A stretch of 64,000 nt of DNA from Klugiella xanthotipulae (GTDB lineage Bacteria > Actinomycetota > Actinomycetes > Actinomycetales > Microbacteriaceae): contig NZ_VFPN01000001.1 in NCBI RefSeq assembly GCF_006716695.1, forward strand, positions 682,001 to 746,000, written 5' to 3'. The notes beneath the pieces were generated by a model that did not search any database, was not told the DNA's origin, and saw only the letters and a list, made by a program, of their open reading frames with translations. Below, piece by piece: positions 859 to 37,889 of the stretch. Made by a program: the position numbers and the translations under genes. The stretch's first letter is position 1. Every line of letters starts with the position of its first letter.

Positions 859-1164
859 ATGGCCTGGGAGAATAGCCGACCAAGCCACGTGCCAACAGCA
901 GTCCGTGACGCCTGCCTTGCACGAGACAACCACCGGTGCACCGTTACCCAGCGCAACGGCACCCGCTGCCCCGAGACCGCCAACCTTGAAGCCGCCCACA
1001 TCGACCAATGGGTGTGGGGTGAGACCACGACAGTAGCGATGGTCGTAACCAAGTGCCATTGGCACCACAACCGCGAGACCCAAGCGCAAGCCGCCGCCGC
1101 ACGTGGTCCTCGACAGTCCTACCTCCGAGCTGAGGAGCGTCACCCTGGACTACTCCACGAGTAG
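859..1164 (+). CDS. HNH endonuclease, phage type
   Basis: A 101-residue protein with the elements of an HNH nuclease. The first metal-binding cysteines lie in HRCTVTQRNGTRCPE, the first catalytic histidine in EAAHID and the closing cysteine and histidines in CHWHHN. In many siphoviruses a small HNH protein is encoded next to the terminase genes and is needed with terminase for cutting DNA at packaging (established for HK97-like phages). Its position about 0.9 kb before the small terminase gene fits that role. A GGAGG site lies 7 bases before the ATG. Whether it cuts at a cos site cannot be read from the sequence. Confidence 0.75.
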   Translation: MAWENSRPSHVPTAVRDACLARDNHRCTVTQRNGTRCPETANLEAAHIDQWVWGETTTVAMVVTKCHWHHNRETQAQAAAARGPRQSYLRAEERHPGLLHE

Positions 1165-2075: not shown

Positions 2076-2546
2076 ATGGCCGGCGTCGGACCCCCACCCA
2101 AAGACCCCAATAAGCGCGCCCGCCGAAACAAGGATGTCGCGCCGCTGCACGTCGTGACCGTCGAGCCTGACCCACAACCCGAACTTCCCGAGTTCGAGGT
2201 GCAGGTAACTATCGACGGCGACTTGCAAAGCACCAAGTTCGTGTGGCCCGAGGCAACCCGTCGGTGGTGGAACGTCATGGGAGACCACCCGCTCGCCCCA
2301 AGCTTCACCAACCTTGATTGGGAATATCTTCTCGACACGGCGCGTCTCCATGCCGACTACTGGCAAGGGAATCTCAAGCAGGCCGGCGAGCTGAGGCTAC
2401 GAATGGCGAAATACGGTTTCACCCCCGAAGACCGCGCTCGCCTTCGAATCAGTTTCGCGCAAGCAACAACCTCAGAAGCCGAGGCCCGAACGAAGTCCGA
2501 CAAACCCCCGTCATCTCGGGACCGGTACGGAATGAGCGCAACCTAA
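2076..2546 (+). CDS. terminase small subunit
   Basis: A 156-residue protein placed immediately before the large terminase, with its stop directly adjacent to the next ATG at 2547. Its N-terminus is basic and proline-rich (PPPKDPNKRARRNKD), as in many actinophage small terminases. A central helical part contains WPEATRRWWNVMGDHP and LDWEYLLDTARLHADYW. The role is recognising phage DNA for packaging together with TerL. The start is supported by a GGGAGAG site 6-12 bases upstream; the same AAACGGGAGAG string precedes the scaffold gene at 6670. The identification rests on position and overall pattern rather than a diagnostic motif. Confidence 0.75.
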   Translation: MAGVGPPPKDPNKRARRNKDVAPLHVVTVEPDPQPELPEFEVQVTIDGDLQSTKFVWPEATRRWWNVMGDHPLAPSFTNLDWEYLLDTARLHADYWQGNLKQAGELRLRMAKYGFTPEDRARLRISFAQATTSEAEARTKSDKPPSSRDRYGMSAT

Positions 2547-4239
2547 ATGCCCTGGAAGCCCCTCGACGGCGACAAGTTCCCCACCCTGGGGTTTCACGTG
2601 GCCGACCAGATGACCGAGTTCCTTGTGACCCCAAACGCGGGCGATGGAGAACCGACGCCCTTCATGCCCACGCGCGAACAGCTTGAATTTCTTGTCCGCC
2701 TGTACCAGCTCGACCCCATCACGGGCGCACGGGTCAAGCACCGGGGCGTGTTGAAGCGGCCGCGAGGGTGGGGTAAGAGCCCGTTTGTGGGCGGCGTCAT
2801 GATCTCGGAGGCTCTGTTCGAGGTAGTTCCAGATGGCTGGGACGCCGACGGGCAGCCCGTCGCCAAGCCGTGGTCCGCGGTACGCACGCCCCTTGTTCTT
2901 GTCACAGCAACCACAGAAGAGCAGACAACGAACACGTGGCACCCTCTACTCGAAATGCTTCGTGGGGGCAGCGCGGCGGATTACTTCGACTGCGATCCAA
3001 TGGACTCGTTCGTGGCGCTGTCCAGCGGCGGGCGGATCGAACCTCGCACATCCGCCGCCCGTTCAGTAATCAGTAAAGGGTGCGCCTACCGTCGCCGCAT
3101 CCCTCGACCAGACCGAGGAATGGGTGCGCGGCAATGGCGGCGTCCGGTTCGCCCAGACGCTTCGCAACAACGCCACGAAGCTGGGCGGCATCACAATCGA
3201 GACGCCTAACGCCTACACCGAGGGTGAGCGCAGCGTGGCAGAGGCCAGCCACAAGTTCTATCTCTCCATCAAGGCCGGCAAGGTTCGCGGCGTGGAGTCG
3301 GAAGACGTTTCCACCCTCGTGTACGACGACCGTGAAGCTCCTGCCGACACTGACATTGACGATGCGGAATCGCTCATCGCTGGCCTCCGAGTGGCCTATG
3401 GTGACTCGTCAAACCATCCTGACGGGTGCGTTATCCATAACCCGCCCTGCCCGCCAGGCTGGTCGCCCATTGGCGGCATCGCCAGCGACTTCTGGGACAC
3501 CTCGAATGACCCCATGACCATGCGGGCAGACTTCCTTAACCAGACCAGTCCCGAGCGGACAGCATTCGTCTCAGCCTTGGAAATGGAACTCATCAGCAAG
3601 CCCGACAAAGTCGTGTCCAAGACTGAGCCGGTCACGCTGGGGTTTGACGGGTCCGAGGGCCGCAAGCGCGGGATCGCCGATGCCACGGTGCTCGTGGGGT
3701 ACTCGGTTACCCAGAAGCACCTTTTCAAGATTGGATGCTGGTCCCAGCCAGAAGGCCCCACCGGGGTCGGTTGGAAGCCGGACAAGAACGAAGTCAACGC
3801 CGCGTTGCACCAAGCATTCAAGGATTACAACGTGGTGGGGTTCTACGCCGACGCGTCTGCCGGATGATCTGGCGACGTGAAGGCATGGGAAACGAAGTAC
3901 CGCAAGCGGCTGAAGGTCGGGATATCCAAAGAGCAACCGATCCGATGGAACCAGCGACTTGTGTCACGCACCGTTGAAGAATTCGCGAACCTGTACTCCG
4001 CCATTATCGGCGAAGACATCACGTTCGACGGCGGCCTTGAAATGCTCATGCATTTCAAGAACGGTCGTCGTGACCCCCGCCGCGGCGGCTATGTCGTGAA
4101 GAAGCCGGACGACGATCAGGACTTCTCCAAGGTGGATCTGGTCTGGGGCGCAATGTTTGCTCGCGCCGCGGGCGAGGACGCCATTGGCAAGGGCGTCGGA
4201 GCACAAACGAAATCTCGCATGGCCCGTGCGCTTTATTAG
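2547..4239 (+). pseudogene. terminase large subunit, disrupted by a frameshift and a stop codon
   Basis: The whole span would code for about 560 residues, the normal TerL length, but it is broken twice. The ATPase part begins at 2547 and carries a Walker A-like RPRGWGKS near residues 71-78. Around 3063-3076 a tandem TCAGTAA duplication shifts the frame. The true product continues in the other frame as SVKGAPTVAASLDQTEEW and on into the nuclease domain (VTLGFDGSEGRKRG, FYADAS). A TGA at 3865-3867 then interrupts the same frame, which reopens at once as SGDVKAWETKYRK and runs to 4239. Removing one 7-bp copy and reading TGA as a sense codon restores a single ORF. Packaging by this prophage is therefore probably defective unless the lesions are sequencing errors. 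Confidence 0.85.
3063..3076 (+). repeat. 7-bp tandem duplication (TCAGTAA x2) inside terL
   Basis: TCAGTAATCAGTAA is an exact two-copy tandem repeat. Seven is not a multiple of three, and coding similarity switches from frame 3 to frame 1 exactly here. Deleting one copy joins ...TSAAR-SVKGAPTVAASLDQTEEW without a gap, so this looks like a slippage duplication that inactivated the gene. Confidence 0.8.
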
Positions 4240-4248
4240 GAGGATCGA

Positions 4249-5781
4249 GTGGCTACAACCCCCACCGAGTGGCTGCCCGTACTCGCTAAAAAGCTGGATG
4301 CGGGACTCCCCCGCATCCAGCTTCTACGCAGCTACACCACCAAAAACCCGCCGTTACCCGAGATGGGCCACCACTTACGCGCGTCCTGGGTGGCGTTCCA
4401 GCGAAAGGCATGCACCAACTACGGCGGACTCGCCGTGAAGAGTATGGCCTCCCGCATGGTGACTAACGGGGTATCTGTCGGTGGCAGCATCGACAGCCCC
4501 GAGGCCATCCATGCGCGGAAGATCCTACGAGACAACCGCTGGTCGATCCTGGTCGGTGACGCCGTGCGGGACTACCTCACGTGCGGCGTAACCTTCATTG
4601 TCACGGGAACGGACGAGGACGGCAAAGCCGCGATCACCGTCGAGAAGCCAGAGCAAGCCATTGCCTCGATTGACCCCCTTCGCCCGTGGAAAGCGCGGGC
4701 GTTCCTGAAAACCTGGCGCGACCTAGATCTCGGCACGGACCATGCTCTCGTGTGGGCCGACGGGCAGCGCCAGCGATTCGAGCGAGAATCAACGGACGAC
4801 TCGGGCAAGCTCATTTCCCGTATTGCAGGAGGCTGGCAAGCGGTTGGCGCGCCGGATGTATACACTGGGCGCCCCCCGGTCGTCATCCTGGAACGCCCCG
4901 ATGGTAAGGGGTACTTCGAGGATGACACCGACGTTATTGACCGCATTAACCTGGGCAAGCTACAGCGTCTCGTCATCACGGCAATGCAAGCCTTCAAGCA
5001 GCGCGGCATTAAGGGCCTCCCCCAGGAGGACGAAGACGGCAACGATATCGACTGGTCCGAGCGACTACCCTATGCGCCCGGCTCATTGTGGGATCTCCCG
5101 GATAGCGTTGATATTTGGGAATCCGGGTTAACAGATATCCGTCCCCTTCTGGAAGGCGAGAAGTCAGACGCCCGCGACTTTGCGGCGGTATCGTTTACCC
5201 CGATCACGATATTCCTTCCAGACGGTGAGAACCAAACCACGGCAGGGGCGGCGAACGCGAAGGAAGGCCAGGTCAGCCAGGCCCGAAACGAGATCGACCG
5301 CATCACCGTCGGCCTCTCCCTCGCTGTCGTCTACGCCCTCCGCATCGAAGGTGTCGAGATCGGCGAGGATACGGTTGTGGTGGGCTGGCAACCGCCCGAC
5401 CGGGTAAGCACCCCGGAGAAGGTTATTGCAGCCAAGGACGCGAAAGCAGCCGGATTCAGCCAGCACTATATCGCCACGCACGTCATGGGCATGACACCCG
5501 AAGAAATCGCCCTGGAAGAAACGCACCTCGCCGCCCAGCAGCTCGCCGCGGCCGAGATCTTCCAGCCGATACCCCAGGATGGAACACCCGCAGCGCCCGC
5601 CGCGGTTGACCCGACTGAGGTCAAAGCCCAGTTCGATGCTCTCGGCGTTGGTGTACGTGCCGGCGTGGATCCCGATGCCGCGGCCACGGCCGCTGGGCTC
5701 CCGGGTATCAAATTCACCGGGGCCACTCCGGTATCCCTCCGACTGCCACAGGCGGAAGCGGATCTCCTAGAAGAGAAGTAG
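4249..5781 (+). CDS. phage portal protein
   Basis: A 510-residue protein directly after terminase, in the position and length range of the SPP1 gp6-like portal family. The portal forms the dodecameric ring through which DNA enters the head and to which terminase and connector proteins dock. It has the typical mixed alpha/beta body and an acidic, alanine- and proline-rich C-terminus (about residues 430-510). The start is a GTG at 4249 with an AGGAGG site 5 bases upstream, at the very end of the terminase reading frame. The reading frame is intact, in contrast to terL. Confidence 0.85.
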   Translation: MATTPTEWLPVLAKKLDAGLPRIQLLRSYTTKNPPLPEMGHHLRASWVAFQRKACTNYGGLAVKSMASRMVTNGVSVGGSIDSPEAIHARKILRDNRWSILVGDAVRDYLTCGVTFIVTGTDEDGKAAITVEKPEQAIASIDPLRPWKARAFLKTWRDLDLGTDHALVWADGQRQRFERESTDDSGKLISRIAGGWQAVGAPDVYTGRPPVVILERPDGKGYFEDDTDVIDRINLGKLQRLVITAMQAFKQRGIKGLPQEDEDGNDIDWSERLPYAPGSLWDLPDSVDIWESGLTDIRPLLEGEKSDARDFAAVSFTPITIFLPDGENQTTAGAANAKEGQVSQARNEIDRITVGLSLAVVYALRIEGVEIGEDTVVVGWQPPDRVSTPEKVIAAKDAKAAGFSQHYIATHVMGMTPEEIALEETHLAAQQLAAAEIFQPIPQDGTPAAPAAVDPTEVKAQFDALGVGVRAGVDPDAAATAAGLPGIKFTGATPVSLRLPQAEADLLEEK

Positions 5782-5784
5782 GCC

Positions 5785-6597
5785 ATGACCTCGAAAGAAC
5801 TGGCCTACCAGGCCATGGTGGCCGCGACCCGCGAGCGAGTGCTTGCACAGGCCGCGGCCACCTGGACCGGGCTCGGGAGTTACCGTGACTTCGATGCCCG
5901 CCGTTTCGTGGCCCAGGTCGTGCCGCTCGTACAGGCCGGCCAACTCCATGTTGCGACTCTCACCGCGGCCCATATCGCCGGTGCGGCCACAGCGACGCCC
6001 ATTGACCGTGACGCCATCCTCGACGGTCGCGGCACAGCCACCAGTGAGGTGTACCGGCGCCCATTCGTGACCGCCTACACGGCACTCTCCGAAGGGGTTC
6101 CTCTCGACGAGGCATTACGCCGCGGCGCGGCTCGACTAATGGGCCTAGCCTCGACGGACATGCAAATGTCGCGCGTGCGCCAGGCGCAACGCTCGATGGT
6201 TGACCGGGGTATCGATCAGTATCACCGCGTTCTCACGGGCCGGGAAAACTGCGCCCTATGCGTCATTGCCAGCACTCAGCGGTACTGGGTCGCCAACCTC
6301 ATGCCGATACACCCGGGGTGCGATTGCTCTCCCCAGAAGCTCACCGGCAACAACCCACTCCGGCAGGTCATTAACCCCGACCTACTTAATCTGACTCACA
6401 AGGCGATTGACCAGCAGCTTGGACTCTCCGACCGCGGAGCCCGCGACCTCGGTCTCGGCAAAGAGAGCAGCGCCGGTAACCCCCTGAGCGATTACACCGA
6501 CCTCATTACCACGCAGATCCACGGTGAGATTGGGCCGGTGCTCACCTGGCGGTCACACCAGTTCACCACCCCGGCCGACATTCCCGACCTCACCTAA
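5785..6597 (+). CDS. MuF-like head protein (minor capsid protein)
   Basis: A 270-residue protein following the portal with a 3-base gap, the standard place for a MuF-type minor head protein. The C-terminal half holds a cysteine- and histidine-containing segment (GRENCALCVIASTQRYW ... MPIHPGCDCSP), a recurring feature of MuF-domain proteins in actinophages. MuF proteins are packaged in the head and may help DNA injection or assembly. There is no sign of an added toxin domain: the protein ends about 80 residues after the cysteine segment. Confidence 0.75.
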   Translation: MTSKELAYQAMVAATRERVLAQAAATWTGLGSYRDFDARRFVAQVVPLVQAGQLHVATLTAAHIAGAATATPIDRDAILDGRGTATSEVYRRPFVTAYTALSEGVPLDEALRRGAARLMGLASTDMQMSRVRQAQRSMVDRGIDQYHRVLTGRENCALCVIASTQRYWVANLMPIHPGCDCSPQKLTGNNPLRQVINPDLLNLTHKAIDQQLGLSDRGARDLGLGKESSAGNPLSDYTDLITTQIHGEIGPVLTWRSHQFTTPADIPDLT

Positions 6598-6669: not shown

Positions 6670-7275
6670 ATGTCCACAACCCCTGCAAACCCTCCGGCAT
6701 CCGCCCCCCCCCCGGCCGCACCCGAAACGGGAACGCCGACCGGCGAGACACTGCCAGAATCCACCCAGTTGAGTCCGAGCGAAACGCTCACCCTGGCCCA
6801 GGCACTCGCAGAGATCGAGCGCCAGAAGGGGTTCGCGCGCACGTGGGAAACCCGATCCAAAGAGAACCACGCGAAGGCCGTGAAGTTTGACGAATCGGTT
6901 GCCGCCCAGCTCACAAAGGAAGAAGCACTTGCCGCCCAGCTCGCTGAGATGCAAGGCAAGCTGACCGCACGTGAGCAGGCCGACGAGGCGAAACGCCTCG
7001 CAGCCGAAGTCGCGCAAACCCATGGCGTGCCGGTATCCGCTCTACGCGGGACAACGTTAGAAGAGCTAGAGGCGCACGCCTTAGAGCTCAAAGCGCTCAT
7101 CCCGGTGACACCGGCGGCACCCCCAGCCCAGGGCCAAGGTCCGGTGGGTGACCCCATTGGCGGCGAGGCCCAAATCACGTCCGCCGCTGACCTTGACAAC
7201 ATGACCCCACAGCAGATCGAGGCCGCCCGCAAGGCGGGCAAGCTTGACGCGCTCATGGGGATTACTACCTCCTGA
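6670..7275 (+). CDS. capsid scaffolding protein
   Basis: A 201-residue, highly charged and alanine-rich protein immediately before the major capsid gene. The N-terminal 40 residues are proline- and threonine-rich and disordered. Residues about 45-140 form a long predicted helix or coiled coil (AQALAEIERQKGFARTWE and following), typical of scaffolds that template capsid assembly. The C-terminus ends in a short helical region (TPQQIEAARKAGKLDALMG) of the kind that contacts the coat protein. The start has a CGGGAGAG site about 10 bases upstream. No protease gene is seen, so scaffold removal by exit rather than cleavage is likely (inference). Confidence 0.75.
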   Translation: MSTTPANPPASAPPPAAPETGTPTGETLPESTQLSPSETLTLAQALAEIERQKGFARTWETRSKENHAKAVKFDESVAAQLTKEEALAAQLAEMQGKLTAREQADEAKRLAAEVAQTHGVPVSALRGTTLEELEAHALELKALIPVTPAAPPAQGQGPVGDPIGGEAQITSAADLDNMTPQQIEAARKAGKLDALMGITTS

Positions 7276-7290
7276 AAGGGGCAATAGCCC

Positions 7291-8112
7291 ATGTCCATCA
7301 CACACGCAATTCCAAAGATTTGGTCCGCGAAAATCCTGACCGACTTTCGTGAAAACGCAATTTTCGCCGGCCTCGCAAATCGCGAGTATGAAGGGGAGTT
7401 GAAGTCCGGTAACTCCATCCGCATCCCCGGCATCGAGCCCATCGAGATCCATGATTACAAGGCCGCCGGGCGCACCACTGAGCCGGATGAAGTCAGCGAC
7501 ACGGGCCTCGATCTTCTGATCGACCAGGAAAAGTCCTTCGACTTCATTGTCGATGACATTGACGCTGCCCAGGCATCCGCGCCTCTGATGTCGGCCTACA
7601 CCCAGTCCGCCGCCGACGGACTCGTCGAGGATAGTGACAAGTTCCTGGCTGCCCTGGCGATTGCCAACGGAACAGCAGTCACGCCGGGCGCACCGGTCAC
7701 CAGTGCCGAAACCGCATGGAACGCCATCCGCGATCTCCGCAAGGCTCTAAATAAGGCCAAGGTTCCCCAGGCCGACCGCCTCCTAATCGTCAACGCCGAG
7801 TTCGCATCGTACTTGGAGGAATACGAGTCGAAGATTATGGCGGTGGATACCTCTGGTGACTCGTCCGGTTTGCGCGAGGCCACTATCGGTAAGCTCCTCG
7901 GATTCACAACCTACAACAGTGAAAACGTGCCCACCACGAACAAGCCGCAGATGATTGGCTTCCACCGCTCATCCATCGCTTTCGTTTCGCAGATCTCCGC
8001 AACGGAGGCCATGCGGGCCGAGAAGAAGCACGCCGACCGTCTCCGTGGCCTGCACGTCTACGGCGGCAAGGTCATCCGACCCACCGCCGTCGTAACTTAC
8101 ACGGGGGCCTAA
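7291..8112 (+). CDS. major capsid protein
   Basis: A 273-residue protein with the layout of the short coat proteins common in actinobacterial siphoviruses. The N-terminus reads IPKIWSAKILTDFRENAIFAGLANREYEG. A GNSIRIPGIEPIEIHDY segment follows, corresponding to the early strands of HK97-fold coat proteins, then a long helix rich in A, D and S. It follows the scaffold with a 15-base gap and precedes the connector genes, the conserved head-module order. It should be the most abundant virion protein. Confidence 0.85.
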   Translation: MSITHAIPKIWSAKILTDFRENAIFAGLANREYEGELKSGNSIRIPGIEPIEIHDYKAAGRTTEPDEVSDTGLDLLIDQEKSFDFIVDDIDAAQASAPLMSAYTQSAADGLVEDSDKFLAALAIANGTAVTPGAPVTSAETAWNAIRDLRKALNKAKVPQADRLLIVNAEFASYLEEYESKIMAVDTSGDSSGLREATIGKLLGFTTYNSENVPTTNKPQMIGFHRSSIAFVSQISATEAMRAEKKHADRLRGLHVYGGKVIRPTAVVTYTGA

Positions 8113-8353: not shown

Positions 8354-8923
8354 GTGGAAACCCTGGCAACCATAGAAGATGTAGTCTCGGCGATTGGCCG
8401 TGACCTCACTGACGACGAAGCAGCCCGCGCGCAGTTTCCGCTCGACAAGGCGTCCGAGCTGTTCCGCCGCGAGGCGCGCCAACACTTCACTCCTGGCGTG
8501 TCGAGCCCTCGTCTGCGGGTGGTGGGTGGGCTTGTCACGCTTCCGCAGCGGCCCGCCGGCGTGGTTACAAAGGTAACCGACTCTCACGGCCGGCAGGTGC
8601 CGTTCACACAGGATGCCGAGCTGGTCCGGGTACCTGAGCGGGCCGGGCCACTCGTGCGCGTTACCTACTCACACGGCAACGAAGTGGTGCCCGACCTCGT
8701 TCGCCTGACCGTCACCGAGATTGCCCGCAAGGTGCTGGGCATCAGCAAGAAGGCACTTGCGGGCGTAACGCAATACTCGGACACCACGGGCCCATTCACC
8801 GAGTCGGAAACCTACGCCACGTGGGCGCAGGGCGGGCAGACGATGCTATCGCCGGACGATGCTGCCACGGCGAGAAGCTATCGCGTGTACCGACGTTATG
8901 CGATAGTGCAGGACTCGCGATGA
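8354..8923 (+). CDS. head-tail connector (adaptor) protein
   Basis: A 189-residue protein starting with a GTG at 8354. The N-terminal part (ATIEDVVSAIGRDLTDDEAARAQFPLDKASELFRREARQHF) is the helical bundle typical of HK97 gp6/SPP1 gp15-type adaptors. A beta domain (LRVVGGLVTLPQRPAGVVTKV and following) comes after it. The adaptor ring binds below the portal. It overlaps the next gene by 4 bases, indicating translational coupling within the head-tail joining module. Confidence 0.75.
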   Translation: METLATIEDVVSAIGRDLTDDEAARAQFPLDKASELFRREARQHFTPGVSSPRLRVVGGLVTLPQRPAGVVTKVTDSHGRQVPFTQDAELVRVPERAGPLVRVTYSHGNEVVPDLVRLTVTEIARKVLGISKKALAGVTQYSDTTGPFTESETYATWAQGGQTMLSPDDAATARSYRVYRRYAIVQDSR

Positions 8924-11655: not shown

Positions 11656-14571
11656 GTGTCAGACGGCGTACTTTACGTAGAGGTCATGCCCTCAACCAAG
11701 GGCATCGGCCGCGCGGTGGAGAAGGACATCACCGGGCAATTCGGCGCATCCGAGAAGGCCGGAACCGGGTTCTGGTCGCGCATGGGCGGCCTCGCCAAGA
11801 CCACCGCAAAGGTGTTCGGCGGGGCTGTCGCGGTCGTCGGCGCACTGTCCATCAAGGGCGGCATCTCCCGCGCGCTCAACATCGAGGATGCCCAGGCGAA
11901 GCTCAAGGGTCTTGGTCACGACACTAAGACTGTCGAAGCGATCATGAAAAACGCTCTCGGCGCAGTCAAAGGCACCGCCTACGGTCTCGACTCAGCGGCA
12001 ACTGTCGCGGCCTCAGCCGTTGCTGCCGGCATTAAGCCCGGCAAGGAACTGGAAGGCTACCTGCGCCTCACCGCGGACGCCGCCACTATCGCCGGCACCT
12101 CGATGGAGGATATGGGTTCCATTATTAACAAGGTCACGGCCAAGGGCCGGGCCGGTATGGAAAACCTCAATCAACTCACCGAGCGCGGTATTCCCATCGT
12201 GCAGTGGCTCGCCGACGAGTACGGCGTCACCGCGGGCGAGCTGGAAAAAATGGTCTCGCAGGGCAAGGTTGACTCCGCCACGTTCCGCAAGGTCATCGAA
12301 GAAAACATCGGCGGTGCCGCGCTGGCCTCGGGTGAAACGACCCGTGGCGCGCTCGCAAACATGATGGCGGCGTTCTCACGGCTGGGTGAGGCTGCGGTGT
12401 CGGGCGTCATGCCGCAGATGAAGCACGCGTTCGGTGCAATCACTACCGCCGTAGACAGCCTGACTGATGCTGTACGGCCCGCTGCCGAACGTTTCGGTGG
12501 TCTCGTCGAGCTACTGCGCACCGGTGATTTCACGGCGGCGATGCGCGAGAATTTCGGCTGGCAAGAAGATTCCCCAATTGTCTCCGCGATGCTCCGCATT
12601 CACCAGGGCGTAGCCGGGCTATTCGAGCTCGTGAAGACCGGGACGTTCACAGAAGACCTGACCCGCGCGTTCGGGTGGGAGCCTGACGACCGGATCGTAG
12701 ATTTCCTGTTGGGCATACGTGACGGCGTGACGGACATCGGCCCGGGCCTGAAAACCCTGGTTGAATACTTCACCCCGCTGGGCGTAGCTATGAAGGTCAT
12801 GGAGCCCTCAATGGGGCTACTACAGGCCGCTTTCTTCGACCTCACCGACGCTCTCGGCGGCGCGCTGAAAGACGCCCTGCCCTCGCTTGTGAAGAGCTTC
12901 GTGGATCTCGCGGTGGCGCTCGTACCACTCCTGCCATCGCTCGTGGAACTCGTGGCATCTGTAGTACAGCTCGCGGCATCGGCGTTGCCGCCGCTGGTCA
13001 CCGTGCTGGCGTCCGTCGCTGGCTGGTTGACTGAGAATGAGGTGGCGGTTCAAGCCCTCGCCATCGCGCTAGCAGCCGGGTATGCCGGGTACCTTGCGTA
13101 CAAGTCGATTGGCACGATCATGGCGACCGTGAAAAACGCCACCCTGGCGGCGAAGATTGCACAGCAGGCATACACCGCGGCGATGGCTGGTGGCAACCTG
13201 GCGTCAATCAAGGTCGCTAAATCAAGCGCGTTGCAGACCATGGCCCTTGCGAAGGGCGCGCTTGCGGGTAAGGCGATGCTCGCCATGCAGAAGCTCGCGA
13301 CCGCAGCCCAATGGCTGTGGAACGCGGCACTGTCGGCCAACCCCATCGGCATCATCATTATGGCCATTGCGGCTCTCGTTGCTGGACTGGTCTGGTTCTT
13401 CACACAGACCGAACTCGGCCAGGAAATTTGGTCAGGGTTCATGGGCTTCCTTGGTGATGCGCTGGGCAATATCGGCCAGTGGTTTGCGGATGCGTGGGAG
13501 TGGATTTCAGCCGGTCTCACGGACCTCTGGGAAGGCGTTCTGAAGCCCATCTTCGAGGGCATCGGGGCCGTATTCACGTGGCTCTGGGATGCAATAATTC
13601 ACCCTTATATCTCACTCATCCTGCTCTACATCGGGCTGTGGGCCGCGCTCATCACGTGGGTATGGGGAAGCATCATCTCTCCCACATTCGTCCTGATCGG
13701 CGCAATTTTCACGTGGCTCTGGGAGAACGCCATTCAGCCCGCCATCGACGGGATCGGCGCGCTCATTACGTGGCTCTGGGAAACGGTGTTCCTCCCAGTT
13801 GGTGAGTTCATCGTCGCCGCGATCACAGGAATTGGCATCGTTGCGACGTGGCTCTGGGAAAACGTATTTAGCCCGACGTTTACCGCCATCGGCGCAATCA
13901 TCGACTGGGTGTGGAACAGCGTCATCATGCCCGTCGCCGGGTTCATCATCGGCGTCTTTCAGGGCATCGGTGCCGTCGCCTCCTGGCTGTGGGCTAATGC
14001 GATTAGCCCAGCGATAAACGCTATCGGCGGTGCGATGAACTGGGTATGGAACTCCATCATCAAACCTGTCGCCAATTTCATCGGTGACGCGTTCCGCAAC
14101 ATTGGCAACACAGCCAAGGATATCTTCAACGGTGTCCGAGACACCGTAGAAACGGTGTTTGGTGCGCTCATGGGGATCATACGCGGCCCCGTGAACGCGG
14201 TGATCGATTTCATCAACACGATGATTGGCGGACTCAACGGCATCTCTATCGAGATCCCCGACTGGGTTCCTGAGTGGGGCGGCAAAACTTTCGGCCTGTC
14301 GATCCCGAAGATTCCGCGAATGGCTGAGGGCGGCACCATCCTCCCTCGTGCTGGCGGAACCCTCGCGATCCTCGCGGAGGCCGGGCGGGCAGAGTCCGTG
14401 GTGGACACCGGGAAGATGAACGCACTTCTCGATGTGGCACTCAGCGGCCGCAGCGAAACGCCCACAAGCGGTGCGACAGTCATCCAGCACATTACGACGG
14501 TGCAGGACGACCCGACATTACAGGCCCGCCAGTGGTCCCGTGAGGCAGCGAGAGGAATGGCGTCCGTATGA
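11656..14571 (+). CDS. tape measure protein
   Basis: A 971-residue protein, the longest in the prophage, after the G/GT genes. It sets tail length and is ejected during infection. The N-terminal 250 residues include TKGIGRAVEKDITGQFG and a segment typical of phage tape measures (DAQAKLKGLGHDTKTVEAIMKN ... AMENLNQLTERGIPIVQWLADEYGVT...). Residues about 390-590 contain several hydrophobic segments that may insert into the host membrane. Residues about 630-810 are a run of tryptophan repeats described separately. The GTG start at 11656 follows a GGGAGCAGG site. No peptidase or lysozyme domain was recognised. The stop overlaps the next ATG. Confidence 0.9.
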   Translation: MSDGVLYVEVMPSTKGIGRAVEKDITGQFGASEKAGTGFWSRMGGLAKTTAKVFGGAVAVVGALSIKGGISRALNIEDAQAKLKGLGHDTKTVEAIMKNALGAVKGTAYGLDSAATVAASAVAAGIKPGKELEGYLRLTADAATIAGTSMEDMGSIINKVTAKGRAGMENLNQLTERGIPIVQWLADEYGVTAGELEKMVSQGKVDSATFRKVIEENIGGAALASGETTRGALANMMAAFSRLGEAAVSGVMPQMKHAFGAITTAVDSLTDAVRPAAERFGGLVELLRTGDFTAAMRENFGWQEDSPIVSAMLRIHQGVAGLFELVKTGTFTEDLTRAFGWEPDDRIVDFLLGIRDGVTDIGPGLKTLVEYFTPLGVAMKVMEPSMGLLQAAFFDLTDALGGALKDALPSLVKSFVDLAVALVPLLPSLVELVASVVQLAASALPPLVTVLASVAGWLTENEVAVQALAIALAAGYAGYLAYKSIGTIMATVKNATLAAKIAQQAYTAAMAGGNLASIKVAKSSALQTMALAKGALAGKAMLAMQKLATAAQWLWNAALSANPIGIIIMAIAALVAGLVWFFTQTELGQEIWSGFMGFLGDALGNIGQWFADAWEWISAGLTDLWEGVLKPIFEGIGAVFTWLWDAIIHPYISLILLYIGLWAALITWVWGSIISPTFVLIGAIFTWLWENAIQPAIDGIGALITWLWETVFLPVGEFIVAAITGIGIVATWLWENVFSPTFTAIGAIIDWVWNSVIMPVAGFIIGVFQGIGAVASWLWANAISPAINAIGGAMNWVWNSIIKPVANFIGDAFRNIGNTAKDIFNGVRDTVETVFGALMGIIRGPVNAVIDFINTMIGGLNGISIEIPDWVPEWGGKTFGLSIPKIPRMAEGGTILPRAGGTLAILAEAGRAESVVDTGKMNALLDVALSGRSETPTSGATVIQHITTVQDDPTLQARQWSREAARGMASV
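13570..14065 (+). repeat. eight W(L/V)W repeats in the tape measure gene
   Basis: The encoded protein repeats an I/F-x-W-(L/V)-W-x-x-(A/S/V) core eight times, spaced about 18-38 residues: TWLWDAI, TWVWGSI, TWLWENA, TWLWETV, TWLWENV, DWVWNSV, SWLWANA, NWVWNSI. Several copies share the DNA string ACGTGGCTCTGGGA, showing recent internal duplication. Confidence 0.8.
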
Positions 14572-18914: not shown

Positions 18915-19709
18915 ATGAAAATCCGCACCGTCCGCCCCGACCCGCGCAAGTACACGCCCGGTCGCCCCAACGGAAAACCCAACCTGTTTGTCATCCATCA
19001 CCAAGCCGGGTATCAGGAGAACTCGATCCGGGTACTCACGACAGGCCAAGGTGCACCGTCGGCGAGCTACATCATCTCCGAGGGTGACGTGGTGGCGTCC
19101 GTCCCTGAGGGGGACACCCCGTGGACTAATAACAACTGGGCCAGCAACACGAGGTCGATCACGTTCGAGTTGGCGAACTCGCCGGGCATGGCTCCGCCGT
19201 CGCGCGGCACGCTCGAATCGGCAGCGCAGGTCATGGCGGCCGCTGCCCGACGCTGGGGATACACGGTCCCGCTCACACGGGCGAACGTCAAGGGACACAA
19301 CGAAGTCGCAGACAAACCCACCGCCTGCCCTGGCGGCACAGATCTCGGGTGGCTCATCGCCCGAGCAAACCAAATCCTCACCGGCACCTCGGCCCCCAGC
19401 GTGGCCGAGCAGGTGAAGGCCCTAGTAGAAAGCGGCACCATGTACGCACGAATCGTGAACACCAACCCCGCCGAAAAGACACGGTGGCTTATCAATCTCC
19501 GTACCGCAGCGTATGCCGCGATGACCTCTAACGAGCAAGGCCAAGCGGCGCTTCGCCTCAAGCTGCCCACTATCGAAATCACAGGCAAGAGCCTGACCGA
19601 GATCGAAAAAGTGCGCCAGAGCGTGAACCTCCTGCGCGATGCGCACCCGGACCTCTTCGACCCTCTGACCAAGGCCGAGCGTAAAGCCCTCGGAGTCGCG
19701 GCCAAGTAG
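18915..19709 (+). CDS. endolysin: N-acetylmuramoyl-L-alanine amidase
   Basis: A 264-residue endolysin. Residues about 25-160 form an amidase_2/PGRP-type domain. Zinc ligands are visible as the histidines in FVIHHQAG, the histidine in VKGHNEV and the cysteine in TACPG. It cuts the amide bond between N-acetylmuramic acid and L-alanine in peptidoglycan. The C-terminal 100 residues carry no recognised wall-binding repeat. I chose the ATG at 18915, which has AAAGGAGTCTT just before it; the longer open frame upstream runs through the fibre gene. There is no signal peptide, so release depends on the membrane proteins encoded next. Confidence 0.85.
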   Translation: MKIRTVRPDPRKYTPGRPNGKPNLFVIHHQAGYQENSIRVLTTGQGAPSASYIISEGDVVASVPEGDTPWTNNNWASNTRSITFELANSPGMAPPSRGTLESAAQVMAAAARRWGYTVPLTRANVKGHNEVADKPTACPGGTDLGWLIARANQILTGTSAPSVAEQVKALVESGTMYARIVNTNPAEKTRWLINLRTAAYAAMTSNEQGQAALRLKLPTIEITGKSLTEIEKVRQSVNLLRDAHPDLFDPLTKAERKALGVAAK

Positions 19710-19722
19710 GCCGTATCGGGGG

Positions 19723-20037
19723 ATGAACGCGCTACACGCCGACGACCCAGAAACCTACTCACTGGCCGAGGTCGTCCGGCTCATGGCTCGCATGGAAAAG
19801 AATCTCAACGAGATCAAGAGCGACATCCAGCGACTCGAAGCCAATTACGTGACCCGGGCCGAGTGGGAGCTTTTTCGCGAGCACGTCGCAACCGAGCTAC
19901 AGCGGTCCAGAGAGAAGCACGACAAGGACATATCGCGGATCGAACGCCGCTCTGCCTCGTGGGTGCCCTACGGTGCCCTGATCGTGTCTGGCCTCGTCGC
20001 CGCAATCACATTTATTCGGGCCATCGTGCCCAGCTAG
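19723..20037 (+). CDS. coiled-coil membrane protein of the lysis cassette
   Basis: A 104-residue protein. Residues about 15-75 form a charged coiled coil (LMARMEKNLNEIKSDIQRLEANY and following). Residues about 80-102 form one membrane segment (WVPYGALIVSGLVAAITFIRAIV). Proteins with this layout are regularly found between endolysin and holin in actinophages and may be a second holin or a holin regulator. It starts 13 bases after the amidase stop. Confidence 0.65.
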   Translation: MNALHADDPETYSLAEVVRLMARMEKNLNEIKSDIQRLEANYVTRAEWELFREHVATELQRSREKHDKDISRIERRSASWVPYGALIVSGLVAAITFIRAIVPS

Positions 20038-20410: not shown

Positions 20411-21598
20411 CTACTCCACCGCTTTCTTTTGGATGGGCAAGAAAGCCTCGATAATTCCACGGTTTGCGCGGAATCCATCCTTCGTTTGGACAATTAGCTC
20501 CCGCCCAAGAAGCTCATTCAAGTCCCTAGATACTGTTTTTGATTCACGCCCGGCATATTCAGCCGTAATGCGGGGGCTAACCTCACGAATCTTCCCTCGA
20601 GGAACCGAAACGCCCATGGGCATATCCAACGCAAGATGCATTTGCCTTCTTTTAGCCGGAGTGTCTTCATCCTTGTACATATCATGGACGAAATTGATCC
20701 AGGTGACCTCATACTGCTGGGCTCGTATCATCTTGATCTGATCTTGCAGCTCATCAACCAAGCCTTGCAGGGCATACTGAATAAAATCCTCCACCGGGTA
20801 GCTAGGGTCACGACTGGTTCTGTCGAGAACAACAAGATACGCATCCCTCGTTCTGTTGTAGTGATTCGACAGGAGGTGTGCAGCGGTTGAGGGGACTCCC
20901 GCTTCAGTCATTAGCTGAAATTCAATCATTCTGGCAGTTCGACCGTTCCCGTCCCCGAAGGGGTGGATCCAGGCAAGGTACACATGCGCAATAATGGACT
21001 TTAAAACCGCCAGGGGAAAGATAAGTTCGGGGTTTTCGTCGGGGGCACGCATCTTGTTTAGCCATGCAACCATTTCCTCGAGAAGATATTCACAGTCTTC
21101 TGCTGGCGCACCCCTGTAGTGGCCGATGCCAACAGTTACACCGTGGGTTCGCACCTTGCCAGGTTCCACCTCCGGCTTCAGCGGGAGACCCTTGAGAATC
21201 GTCTTATTGAAATGCTTGATTCTCGAGACGGAGAGACTCTGGTCGCGCCCCTCAATCACATCGTCCATGACCTCGTTACAGAGGCTGAGGATATTGTCGA
21301 TCTCAGTGCCCAGATATTCACGGGACTGCGGAAGCTCCAAATCTCCATCGATGCGCTGCCTAACCTCGTCTTCGGAGAGAGTGTTACCTTCGATACTTGC
21401 TGTGCCATGGATGCTCTTTGTAAGCATAACTTGATGCAACTCACGGGCAGTCGCAGGCGTCAGCGGTGCCCCAGCTAAGTGCTGGCATTTAGACTTGGCT
21501 TCGCCAAGCAGCAACCATGTCTTGTGATGAAGGTTACTGAGATCAAGCTTGAAGATGATCCATGGGTGACTCGATTGGTATGTCTTCTGGTCAGGCAT
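20411..21598 (-). CDS. Fic family protein (predicted AMPylase), prophage cargo
   Basis: A 395-residue protein. The catalytic Fic motif HPFGDGNGR lies at about residues 212-220, with an intact histidine and the FGDGNGR phosphate loop, so AMP transfer from ATP to a target hydroxyl is predicted. An inhibitory motif of the [S/T]XXXE[G/N] type is visible N-terminally (TASIEGN, about 66-72), which makes this an N-terminal-inhibited (class II) Fic enzyme. A winged-helix-like DNA-binding region seems present near residues 320-390 (GKIREVSPRITAEYAG...SRDLNELLGRELI), as in many Fic-HTH proteins. It is transcribed against the lysis genes from its own leaderless promoter, at the attachment-site end of the prophage, typical of cargo genes. 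No partner antitoxin is seen; inhibition would be internal. Confidence 0.88.
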   Translation of the reverse strand: MPDQKTYQSSHPWIIFKLDLSNLHHKTWLLLGEAKSKCQHLAGAPLTPATARELHQVMLTKSIHGTASIEGNTLSEDEVRQRIDGDLELPQSREYLGTEIDNILSLCNEVMDDVIEGRDQSLSVSRIKHFNKTILKGLPLKPEVEPGKVRTHGVTVGIGHYRGAPAEDCEYLLEEMVAWLNKMRAPDENPELIFPLAVLKSIIAHVYLAWIHPFGDGNGRTARMIEFQLMTEAGVPSTAAHLLSNHYNRTRDAYLVVLDRTSRDPSYPVEDFIQYALQGLVDELQDQIKMIRAQQYEVTWINFVHDMYKDEDTPAKRRQMHLALDMPMGVSVPRGKIREVSPRITAEYAGRESKTVSRDLNELLGRELIVQTKDGFRANRGIIEAFLPIQKKAVE

Positions 21599-22403: not shown

Positions 22404-22439
22404 GAAGAGGTCGTGGGTTCAAATCCCGCTACCCCGACA
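22404..22439 (+). other. prophage attachment site (3' part of a tRNA-Pro)
   Basis: The stretch carries the variable loop, T-arm and acceptor 3' strand of an actinobacterial tRNA-Pro: AAGAGGTCGTGGGTTC, AAATCCCGC and ACCCCGACA. No 5' half, D-arm or anticodon arm precedes it, so it is not a functional tRNA. Tyrosine integrases often recombine in this part of tRNA genes and leave such a copy at one prophage end. The complete tRNA-Pro and the other junction should lie left of the window. Confidence 0.7.
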
Positions 22440-22443
22440 AATT

Positions 22444-22484
22444 ACTCCCCCTGGTTCCTGCAAAGGGATCAGCGGGGAGTTTTT
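22444..22484 (+). terminator. terminator following the tRNA-Pro fragment
   Basis: ACTCCCC (22444-22450) pairs with GGGGAGT (22474-22480), followed by TTTT. It is probably the native terminator of the interrupted tRNA gene and marks the return to host sequence. Confidence 0.7.
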
Positions 22485-30794: not shown

Positions 30795-31706
30795 TCACTC
30801 GACGGTTGTCACGAGTGACTGCGCCTCAGCATAGTACGCCGTCTCAACCTCGACCGGGGTTCGCCTGCCTAGCTCGCCGTGGAGGCGCTCATTGTTCCAC
30901 CACCACACATACTCCAGGGTGGCGAGTTCGACTTCCTCAACTGTTTTCCAGGGGCCACGCCTGCGGATGAGTTCTGCTTTGTAGAGCGCGTTCACTGACT
31001 CGGCCAGGGCATTATCGTAGCTGTCACCTACGGTCCCCGTTGAAGGAATCGCCCCCAGTTCTCTGACGCGGTTGGAGTAGACCATCGACATGTAGTTCGA
31101 TCCGTGGTCGCTGTGATGCACGGCCCCGTCGAGCGTTCCACCTGATTGCCAGGCCGCCATCTCAAGCGCCTGCAGCGGCAGTATCTCAGCTTTCAGTGTT
31201 GAGGCAACGTTCCAGCCAACGATCTTACGATCAAAGACATCAATAATGAACGCGGTGTATGCGAACCCAGCCCACGTAGCAACGTAAGTGATGTCACACA
31301 CCAACAACTTCATTGGCCCGTCGGCCACGAACTGGCGTTCGACGAGATCACCCGGCAGCTGATCCCTGACGTCACTCGTTGTTGTGAAGGCTCTCTTCGA
31401 ACGACGTACTCCACGCACTCCGGCGATTTTCATCAGACGCTCGGTTTGGTCGCGTCCGATGACCCACCCTGCTCTGGTGAGGAGGGCGTGCATCTTGCGG
31501 CGCCCGTAGACGCTGTAGTGCTGTTTGTGGAGTTGACGGATCTCGGTGACGAGAATCTCGTCGCGTAGTTTCCTGACCGACGGGAGTCTGTGTTTCGCTG
31601 CCCGATATCCTCGGGACGTCAGAAACCCACGAATTGCCGAGCCCAGCACACGGCACAGGAACTCAACCCCGAAACGATCACGATAGGTATCGATGAATTG
31701 GATCAT
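30795..31706 (-). CDS. IS3-family transposase OrfB (DDE integrase domain)
   Basis: A 303-residue catalytic subunit. The HTH-like N-terminal part (HKQHYSVYGRRKMHALLTRAGWVIGRDQTERLMKIAGV) precedes an RNase H-fold rve domain. The catalytic residues are visible as D in VCDITYVATW, D in HHSDHGSNYMS and E in NALAESVNALYKAEL. It overlaps orfA by the ATGA at its start and lies in the -1 frame, so the active OrfAB fusion could be made by frameshifting. A stop-restart at ATGA would give free OrfB. Confidence 0.92.
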   Translation of the reverse strand: MIQFIDTYRDRFGVEFLCRVLGSAIRGFLTSRGYRAAKHRLPSVRKLRDEILVTEIRQLHKQHYSVYGRRKMHALLTRAGWVIGRDQTERLMKIAGVRGVRRSKRAFTTTSDVRDQLPGDLVERQFVADGPMKLLVCDITYVATWAGFAYTAFIIDVFDRKIVGWNVASTLKAEILPLQALEMAAWQSGGTLDGAVHHSDHGSNYMSMVYSNRVRELGAIPSTGTVGDSYDNALAESVNALYKAELIRRRGPWKTVEEVELATLEYVWWWNNERLHGELGRRTPVEVETAYYAEAQSLVTTVE

Positions 31707-35360: not shown

Positions 35361-37889
35361 CTAGGAGACTTCACCCAGCGTGGCCGCGGTGGATGCCGCA
35401 GCCGCGGCCGAGGAGGCCACGGTTGATCCGGTGCCGCCCGCGCTCTCACGCGACACGGTCTCAAAGGTGAACTGGCCCGCCACAAAATCGACCTTCACAT
35501 GATCGCCCGCGACGAGTTCACCGTTGAGGATCTTCTCACTGAGCTTGTCCTCCACCTCGTGCTGAACGGCGCGGCGCAGCGGCCGGGCACCCAGCGCGGG
35601 ATCGAAGCCCACCTCAATGAGGCGCTGCTTAGCCGGAACCGCAATCTCGATGGACATATCGCGGTCGAGCATCCGGTCGCGCAGACGGGCCACAAAGAGG
35701 TCCACAATCTGCAACAGCTCGGCCGGGTTCAGCTGCGGGAAGACGATGACATCGTCCACCCGGTTGAGGAACTCGGGCTTGAAGTGCTTCTTGAGCTCCT
35801 CGTTAACCTTGCCCTTCATCTGGCTGTAGTCGGTGGCGCTGTCACCCTCCAACTGGAAGCCAACCGGGCCACCGGCAATGTCGCGAGCACCCAGGTTGGT
35901 GGTCATGATGATGACGGTGTTCTTGAAGTCAACAACGCGACCCTGGCCGTCCGTGAGTCGCCCCTCCTCCAGAATTTGCAGGAGCGAGTTGAAGATGTCC
36001 GGGTGGGCCTTCTCAATCTCGTCAAAGAGGACCACGCTAAACGGCTTGCGGCGCACCTTCTCGGTGAGCTGGCCGCCCTCCTCAAAGCCGACAAACCCGG
36101 GAGGGGCCCCAAAGAGGCGGGAGACGGTGTGCTTCTCGCCGTACTCCGACATGTCGAGCGAGATCATGGCGTCCTCGTCGTCGAACAGGAACTCCGCGAG
36201 GGCCTTCGCCAGCTCGGTCTTACCCACGCCCGTGGGACCGGCGAAGATGAACGAACCGCTGGGGCGCTTCGGGTCTTTCAGGCCCGCGCGCTGGCGGCGG
36301 ATGGTGCGGGCGAGGGCCGAAATCGCCTCGTCCTGGCCGATCACGCGCTGGTGCAGGGCCTTCTCCATGAAGACGAGTCGCGAGGACTCCTCCTCGGTGA
36401 GCTTAAAGACCGGGATACCCGTGGCCTGGGCCAGCACCTCGGCGATGAGTCCCTCATCCACCTCGGCCGTCGTCTGGACATCCCCGGCACGCCACTGCTT
36501 CTCCAGCCGCAACCGCTCGCCCAGAAGCTTCTTCTCCTCGTCGCGCAGGGAGGCGGCCTTCTCGAAGTCCTGGCCCTCGATGGCGGCCTCCTTCTGCTGG
36601 CGCACCGCGGCAATCTTCTCGTCAAACTCGCGCAGCTCGGGCGGCGAGGACAGGATCGACAGGCGCAGACGCGCACCGGCCTCATCAATCAGGTCGATAG
36701 CCTTGTCCGGCAGGAAGCGGTCGCTCACGTAGCGGTCGGCCAGATTGGCCGCGGCCACAATGGCACCATCGGTGATCGACACCTTGTGGAAGGCCTCGTA
36801 CTTGTCGCGCAGGCCCTTCAGGATGTTGATCGTGTGCGGCAGGCTCGGCTCGGCCACCTGGATGGACTGGAAGCGGCGCTCCAGGGCGGCATCCTTCTCA
36901 AAATGCTTGCGGTACTCGTCGAGGGTGGTCGCCCCAATCGTTTGCAGCTCGCCACGGGCCAGCAGAGGCTTGAGGATACTCGCCGCATCAATTGCACCCT
37001 CGGCGGCACCGGCACCCACGAGCGTGTGGATCTCGTCAATGAAGACAATGATGTCGCCCCGCGTCTTAATCTCCTTGGTGACCTTCTTGAGGCGCTCCTC
37101 GAAGTCGCCGCGGTAACGACTACCGGCAATCAATGACCCCAGGTCGAGCGAGTAGAGCTGCTTATCCTTGAGCGTCTCGGGCACATCGCCCTTGACGATG
37201 GCCTGGGCAAGGCCCTCCACAACGGCGGTCTTACCCACACCGGGCTCACCGATCAGGACGGGGTTGTTCTTGGAACGGCGCGACAGAATCTGCATGACCC
37301 GCTCCACCTCTTTTTCGCGGCCGATCACAGGATCAAGCTTGCCCTCGCGTGCGGCACTCGTCAGGTTGCGGCCAAACTGGTCAAGCACCTGCGAGTTCTT
37401 GTCGCTGCCCGTGGGTTCCTGTCCGCCGACGGCGACGGACTCCTTGCCGCTCTGGTATCCGCTCAGTAGCTGAATAACCGTCTGGCGCACGCGGTTGAGG
37501 TCCGCGCCCAACTTGACGAGAACCTGGGCGGCAACACCCTCACCCTCGCGGATCAGGCCCAGCAGAATGTGCTCGGTGCCAATGTAGTTGTGGCCCAGCT
37601 GAAGCGCCTCACGCAGGCTGAGCTCCAGCACCTTCTTGGCGCGAGGAGTAAAAGGGATGTGCCCGGTGGGCTGCTGCTGGCCGGTGCCGATGATGTCGGT
37701 CACCTGCTCGCGCACCGCATCCAGCGAAATGCCGAGAGACTCCAGCGCCTTCGCAGCAACGCCCTCACCCTCGTGGATCAACCCGAGCAGAATGTGCTCG
37801 GTGCCAATGTAGTTGTGGTTGAGCATTTTGGCTTCTTCTTGAGCCAAAACGACCACTCGACGCGCACGGTCGGTAAATCTTTCAAACAT
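35361..37889 (-). CDS. clpC: ATP-dependent Clp protease ATP-binding subunit ClpC
   Basis: An 842-residue Hsp100 unfoldase that feeds substrates to ClpP. Two N-terminal Clp_N repeats (residues about 1-145) precede an AAA+ D1 module with GEPGVGKT. A middle domain with a UVR-like helix ([31 protein letters not shown]) and a D2 module with GPTGVGKTE follow. Walker B-type sites are [12 protein letters not shown] and [13 protein letters not shown]. The C-terminal tail is serine- and alanine-rich. ATG 37889 has a GGAGCGACC site just before it. A ClgR-like palindrome lies 75-93 bases upstream. Confidence 0.95.

What the first reader, a model, noticed from the sequence alone, without database searches (positions are those of the whole stretch)
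2547..3209. Large terminase gene inactivated by a 7-bp tandem duplication
TCAGTAATCAGTAA at 3063-3076 is an exact two-copy repeat, and TerL coding switches frame exactly there. Deleting one copy restores a continuous SAAR-SVKGAPTVAASLDQTEEW reading. Replication slippage of this size is reversible, so the lesion could also act as a rare on/off switch for packaging in a domesticated prophage.
Basis: seen in the sequence. Interest (0 to 1): 0.55.

Follow-up and report, generated by a model that had tools for sequence, protein, structure and literature searches.

The report
Recently broken phage DNA-packaging gene
A dormant virus in a bacterial chromosome carries a DNA-packaging motor gene that is broken in two places, so it is most likely a recently disabled virus rather than a switchable one; this is an ordinary kind of decay.

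Summary
TCAGTAATCAGTAA lies at 3063-3076, and large-terminase (TerL) homology leaves one frame there and resumes in another. In 18 relative rows (17 distinct) the two halves share one open frame, so the window carries a 7-bp insertion relative to them. The repeat alone proves nothing: the window holds 5 exact 7-bp tandem pairs against 4.5 expected, one of them native to the same gene.

The switch reading fails. It cuts the nuclease domain before the third invariant acidic residue. Losing one repeat copy would still leave a truncated TerL.

The prophage (34.7 kb, 47-bp att repeats, tRNA-Pro) otherwise looks whole: 10 other genes with matches in two compared phages are uninterrupted over the matched parts. 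TerL shows little further erosion (3 of 156 invariant columns). No second TerL was found in the genome. Best reading: a young terL pseudogene in a packaging-defective prophage.

Curiosity: the closest isolated phage, vB_MoxS-R1, has its own TerL frame break elsewhere; its authors speculate on frameshifting (PMC9030533).

The parts
2547..3209 (+). terL fragment 1: 220-aa ORF; residues 1-173 homologous to the TerL N-terminal ATPase part (Walker A lysine codon 2775), then out-of-frame tail
3063..3076 (+). two exact copies of TCAGTAA; 7-bp insertion relative to 18 relative rows; frame break
3070..3864 (+). terL fragment 2 in the other frame: DQTE (Walker-B-like, 3106-3117) and the first half of the nuclease domain (Asp codons 3646 and 3850). 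First ATG/GTG/TTG start of that frame is GTG 3124, downstream of DQTE
3865..3867 (+). second lesion: in-frame TGA where all 18 relative rows have Trp
3868..4239 (+). terL fragment 3: end of the nuclease domain with the third invariant acidic residue (codon 4135)
859..1164 (+). HNH endonuclease gene upstream of the terminase genes (PHROGs and R1/xhp1 similarity; no Pfam hit)
2076..2546 (+). terminase small subunit, uninterrupted
   Evidence: (PF25673, E 1.3e-26)
4249..5781 (+). portal protein, uninterrupted
5785..6597 (+). head maturation protease, uninterrupted over the match
6670..7275 (+). head scaffolding protein, uninterrupted over the match
7291..8112 (+). major head protein, uninterrupted
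8354..8923 (+). head-tail adaptor, uninterrupted
11656..14571 (+). tape measure protein, one frame over the (partial) matches
18915..19709 (+). endolysin (Amidase_2)
22404..22450 (.). right att repeat (47 bp, identical to L025 7679-7725 in the 3' part of tRNA-Pro, 34,725 bp upstream)

Best explanation
This is a recently inactivated large-terminase gene in an otherwise complete-looking temperate prophage of a Microbacteriaceae bacterium. One lesion is a 7-bp tandem duplication, most simply made by replication slippage, which breaks the frame between Walker A and the Walker-B-like DQTE stretch. The other is a nonsense codon that cuts the nuclease domain. No fragment keeps both ATPase motifs, and none keeps all three invariant nuclease acidic residues, so DNA packaging should fail. 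Shown: both lesions, the homology, the uninterrupted neighbouring genes that could be compared, and no other TerL found by four searches. Inferred: loss of packaging, the slippage mechanism, the young age, and that excision, replication and lysis may still work.
For: Both junctions lie in one open frame in 18 of 18 complete relative rows (17 distinct), with Trp at the TGA in 18 of 18. In 398 family genomes, 21 of the 21 other genomes with a match have their best match in an open frame of 514-727 aa without stops, while the window's frame is 265 aa. The only matches to phrog_9 or to the relatives' profile in the own genome are the pieces of this gene, and PF03354 and PF03237 give none. Little erosion: 3 of 156 covered invariant columns differ (window 66% to its nearest row), against 7 of 164, 13 of 170 and 30 of 187 for intact rows at 73, 62 and 61% to their nearest. 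GC3 of the pieces is 0.71-0.77, within the 0.63-0.79 of 15 other prophage genes. 10 other prophage genes with matches in vB_MoxS-R1 or xhp1 are uninterrupted over the matched parts. att repeats flank the element.
Against: No reads were seen, and the only other copy (L010, IMG/VR) is identical over 8,864 bases and probably the same assembly, so a sequencing error is not formally excluded. vB_MoxS-R1 is reported as inducible, with an estimated 2000 virions per cell, although its deposited TerL is also split (PMC9030533 passages), so a split annotation does not always mean a dead phage. The low erosion could also mean that the gene is still in use by some unknown recoding.
Confidence: 0.9

Rival explanations
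1. Reversible slippage switch: gain and loss of a 7-bp copy turns packaging on and off.
For: An exact two-copy repeat sits at the frame break.
Against: A second lesion, TGA at 3865-3867, remains whatever the repeat does and cuts off the third invariant nuclease acidic residue. Only two copies; 7-bp pairs are at chance level. Of 53 loci held at that time, the 14-base repeat occurs only in the 6 copies of this locus. No second allele found.
Confidence: 0.02
2. Sequencing or assembly error: one or both lesions are not in the living strain.
For: No reads available; the IMG/VR copy is probably the same assembly; TerL is otherwise little eroded.
Against: Two anomalies of different kinds in one gene. 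10 other prophage genes are uninterrupted over their matches. Of 10 host ORFs scanned, 8 have NCBIfam hits; malate:quinone oxidoreductase, cardiolipin synthase and LysS match end to end and RadA nearly so, the other four hits are partial or split. A 7-bp duplication is not a typical short-read error (recalled).
Confidence: 0.06
3. Programmed recoding: TerL is made by ribosomal frameshifting (as its authors speculate for vB_MoxS-R1) plus stop readthrough.
For: vB_MoxS-R1, an inducible relative, has a TerL frame break and its authors speculate on a -1 frameshift (PMC9030533 section 3.7 passage). The window's TerL keeps almost all invariant residues.
Against: The R1 break is at Walker A, about 96 codons upstream of this one, where the window is in frame. 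The other 17 of 18 relative rows have no break in the region compared. Two separate recoding events would be needed. No recoding signal was recognised by eye; none was sought by a program.
Confidence: 0.02

Closest known systems
Inactivated packaging or structural genes in cryptic prophages (recalled as a general kind)
   Same: A packaging gene with a frameshift and a nonsense codon in an integrated prophage
   Different: Here only terL is seen to be hit among the genes that could be compared, so the loss is probably young
TerL of Microbacterium phage vB_MoxS-R1 (NC_070775; PMC9030533)
   Same: Best-ranked record of the phage collection for both TerL pieces (about 67% identity); its TerL is also annotated in two overlapping pieces
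   Different: Its break is at Walker A, and there is no nonsense codon later in the gene; the phage is reported as inducible
TerL of Actinomyces phage xhp1 (MG941013)
   Same: 58-63% TerL identity; primase-polymerase, TerS, TerL, portal, protease, scaffold and capsid in the same order
   Different: Its TerL is one intact ORF of 556 aa
HK97 large terminase (PDB 6z6d) and TerL nucleases such as G20c (5m1f)
   Same: Fold of a relative's model: 5m1f Z 16.4, rmsd 3.0, 173 residues, model 333-538; 6z6d Z 17.5, rmsd 9.7, 353 residues
   Different: The model is weak outside the nuclease domain (mean pLDDT 54.8); no sequence-level hit in the PDB

Membership tests
Large terminase (TerL), functional gene | Homology to TerL over its length | tested here: met
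   phrog_9 on fragments 1 and 2 (fragment 3 alone had no hit); all three pieces match 18 relatives' TerL in order
Large terminase (TerL), functional gene | One continuous reading frame | tested here: not met
   7-bp frame break at 3063-3076 and TGA at 3865-3867
Large terminase (TerL), functional gene | Walker A and Walker B in one polypeptide | tested here: not met
   Walker A lysine (codon 2775) is before the break; DQTE (3106-3117, Walker B by recall) is after it in another frame
Large terminase (TerL), functional gene | Nuclease domain with three acidic residues | tested here: not met
   Invariant D at 3646 and 3850 precede the TGA, D at 4135 follows it; the catalytic role is recalled
Slippage-switched (phase-variable) gene | Repeat change alone toggles a complete open frame | tested here: not met
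   TGA at 3865-3867 persists in the resumed frame
Slippage-switched (phase-variable) gene | Both allele states seen in isolates | tested here: inconclusive
   Only one allele held; the genus has one genome in the collection
Programmed frameshift gene | Break conserved at the same site in relatives | tested here: not met
   0 of 18 relative rows break there; R1 breaks elsewhere
Temperate prophage | att repeats, integrase, repressor-like gene | tested here: met
   47-bp repeat 34,725 bp apart, left copy in tRNA-Pro; integrase and HTH regulator

The most novel reading that the evidence does not exclude
In this TerL lineage frame breaks recur (here and in the inducible phage vB_MoxS-R1), and the protein is still made by recoding across the frame break and the TGA, so that packaging is limited at translation.
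Probability: 0.02. Interest if true: 0.6.

Novelty: new member of a known kind. Interest (0 to 1): 0.12.

Why it matters
Mostly as a clean example of early prophage decay: one late gene dead by two lesions while the genes that could be compared are preserved, so the element may still excise, replicate and lyse without making DNA-filled particles (inferred). It also warns against reading a short tandem repeat at a frame break as a switch before the rest of the gene has been checked.

Tried and rejected
Reversible switch: rejected because of the second lesion. Split-protein function: rejected because no fragment keeps both ATPase motifs and the first ATG/GTG/TTG start of fragment 2 (GTG 3124) lies after DQTE. 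A second TerL acting in trans from the same genome: not found with phrog_9, PF03354, PF03237 or the relatives' profile; Pfam as a whole also misses this gene's three fragments and an intact relative, so the two Pfam negatives say little about this family. A GIY-YIG search of the own genome bore on nothing and is not used.

Led nowhere: a six-frame comparison of the relatives' open frames with the prophage was swamped by shadow frames of high-GC DNA and its output was cut; it is not used. The TerL pieces and alignment gave no PDB sequence hit. The AlphaFold model of a relative is weak outside the nuclease domain. The second IMG/VR contig holding the 18-base pattern (L054) does not read as TerL there. 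Paper searches for terL pseudogenes or tandem duplications in prophages and for Nyceirae were seen as listings only; none of the listed papers was opened apart from PMC9030533 (passages). The IMG genome number 2818991320 gave no paper. Three distant loci (L003-L005) were dropped before the count of 18 because they lacked one or more of the three matches; L010 was left out as the same sequence. My notebook entries 1 and 2 hold two slips mended here: the TGA place (mended in entry 3) and the number of comparable genes (12 there, 10 by recount).

Full report
What is there. The 14 bases TCAGTAATCAGTAA are at 3063-3076. The ORF 2547-3209 starts as a large terminase (TerL): phrog_9, E 1.1e-14, residues 9-172. 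From 3070 the homology runs in another frame: fragment 3124-3864 matches phrog_9 at 5.2e-7, and the resumed frame reads SVKGAPTVAASLDQTEEW.... A second interruption follows in that frame, TGA at 3865-3867, after which homology resumes and runs to the end of the gene at 4239.

Comparison with relatives. I searched with pieces, never with a mended gene. tblastn of the three pieces against fetched loci gave 18 rows with all three pieces (L006-L009, L011-L024); L003-L005 are distant and incomplete and were dropped, and L010 is the same sequence as the window (100% over 8,864 bases). L009 and L018 are identical over the stretch compared, leaving 17 distinct; several others are close to each other (up to 99%). 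In 18 of 18 rows the parts on both sides of the window's frame break and of the TGA lie in one open frame, and at the TGA all 18 have tryptophan. In 15 rows the flanks overlap by exactly one codon, in 3 the first match stops short with consistent spacing, so the window has a 7-bp insertion. One row, phage vB_MoxS-R1, is broken elsewhere, at Walker A. Among 398 genomes of the family, 22 including the window's match fragment 2; the best matches of the 21 others lie in open frames of 514-727 aa with no stop, the window's in 265 aa.

Is the repeat itself remarkable? No. Exact 7-bp tandem arrays: 5 in the window, 4.49 +/- 2.13 expected from 100 first-order simulations. One of the five, at 3202-3215, lies in the same gene, in frame, and codes for T-P-N-A-Y, of which P, N and A are invariant in the relatives. 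It is the frame break against homologues that makes the pair at 3063 a duplication.

Consequence. The Walker A lysine is codon 2775, before the break. DQTE, Walker-B-like (label recalled), is at 3106-3117, after it. The invariant Asp codons 3646 and 3850 lie before the TGA, the invariant Asp codon 4135 after it. A model of an intact relative (L011) places residues 333-538 on TerL nucleases (5m1f, Z 16.4, rmsd 3.0, 173 residues); its mean pLDDT is only 54.8, with the nuclease part better. The TGA corresponds to its residue 435, inside that domain. So a strain that lost one repeat copy would still make a TerL without the end of its nuclease domain. The switch idea fails on this.

The rest of the prophage. 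A 47-bp direct repeat lies 34,725 bp apart, the left copy in the 3' part of tRNA-Pro in the upstream stretch L025, the right at 22404-22450. Between them are an integrase, an HTH regulator, replication genes, HNH, small terminase, portal, protease, scaffold, capsid, tail, tape measure, amidase and Fic-domain genes. I compared 64 of the 131 annotated proteins of vB_MoxS-R1 and xhp1 with the prophage: 20 hit, on 11 prophage genes, and terL alone of the 11 is interrupted over the matched parts (44 had no hit, 43 of them printed and one, xhp1_hnh, hidden by my name test). The other prophage genes could not be tested that way. No other terminase was found in the genome, though the Pfam negatives are weak because Pfam misses this family's fragments and an intact member.

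Age. Of 157 columns invariant in 16 relatives, the window's pieces cover 156 and differ at 3. Intact rows differ from the columns invariant in the others at 7 of 164 (73% to nearest), 13 of 170 (62%) and 30 of 187 (61%); closer rows differ at 0-7. The window's nearest row is at 66%. GC3 is ordinary. So the gene was probably under selection until recently (inferred); the order of the two lesions is unknown.

Error? No reads are held, and the IMG/VR copy is probably the same assembly. Of 10 host ORFs scanned 8 had NCBIfam hits, three end to end and RadA nearly so, so the assembly is not full of frame errors there. Two anomalies of different kinds in one gene are best taken as real.

Host. Its family is inferred to be Microbacteriaceae: genome G379, placed in the same family as the window, holds the same TerL stretch as Frigoribacterium faeni L009 (NCBI lineage).

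Prior reports. PMC9030533 (12 of 27 passages seen) describes vB_MoxS-R1, induced by mitomycin C with an estimated burst of 2000, its TerL in two ORFs, and speculates on a -1 frameshift that needs verification; it also mentions a split terL in Gordonia phage Nyceirae. The R1 break (L006 about 3230) is about 96 codons upstream of the window's, at a place where the window and the other 17 rows read through. It does not explain this case, but it shows that a split TerL annotation can occur in a phage reported as active.

Verdict. Observation right; inactivation right; switch wrong. An ordinary, young terL pseudogene in an otherwise complete-looking prophage.

Noticed in passing
L006 about 3228-3236 (NC_070775.1 about 19,720-19,730): Inducible Microbacterium phage vB_MoxS-R1 has a frame break in TerL exactly at Walker A; its authors speculate on a frameshift (PMC9030533). 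The other 17 relative rows read through there, so sequencing error, recoding or a real lesion remain open.
   Followed up: partly
window 3202-3215: A second exact 7-bp tandem pair (ACGCCTAACGCCTA) in terL, in frame, coding T-P-N-A-Y: a control showing that such pairs need not be lesions.
   Followed up: yes
window 20411-21598 (-): Fic/DOC-domain protein (PF02661, E 1.8e-14) near the right end of the prophage, a likely cargo gene.
   Followed up: no
window 30795-31706 (-): IS3-family transposase ORF matching profile positions 92-369 of 369 only, that is, without the N-terminal part that IS3 elements usually make by frameshifting (recalled).
   Followed up: no
window 37561 and 37786: A 33-bp exact repeat 225 bp apart inside the Clp-family ATPase gene 35361-37889, perhaps the two N-terminal repeats of Clp proteins (recalled).
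   Followed up: no
window 13573-13860: Repeated 14-17-bp stretches in the tape measure gene, coding repeats of a tryptophan-rich motif.
   Followed up: no
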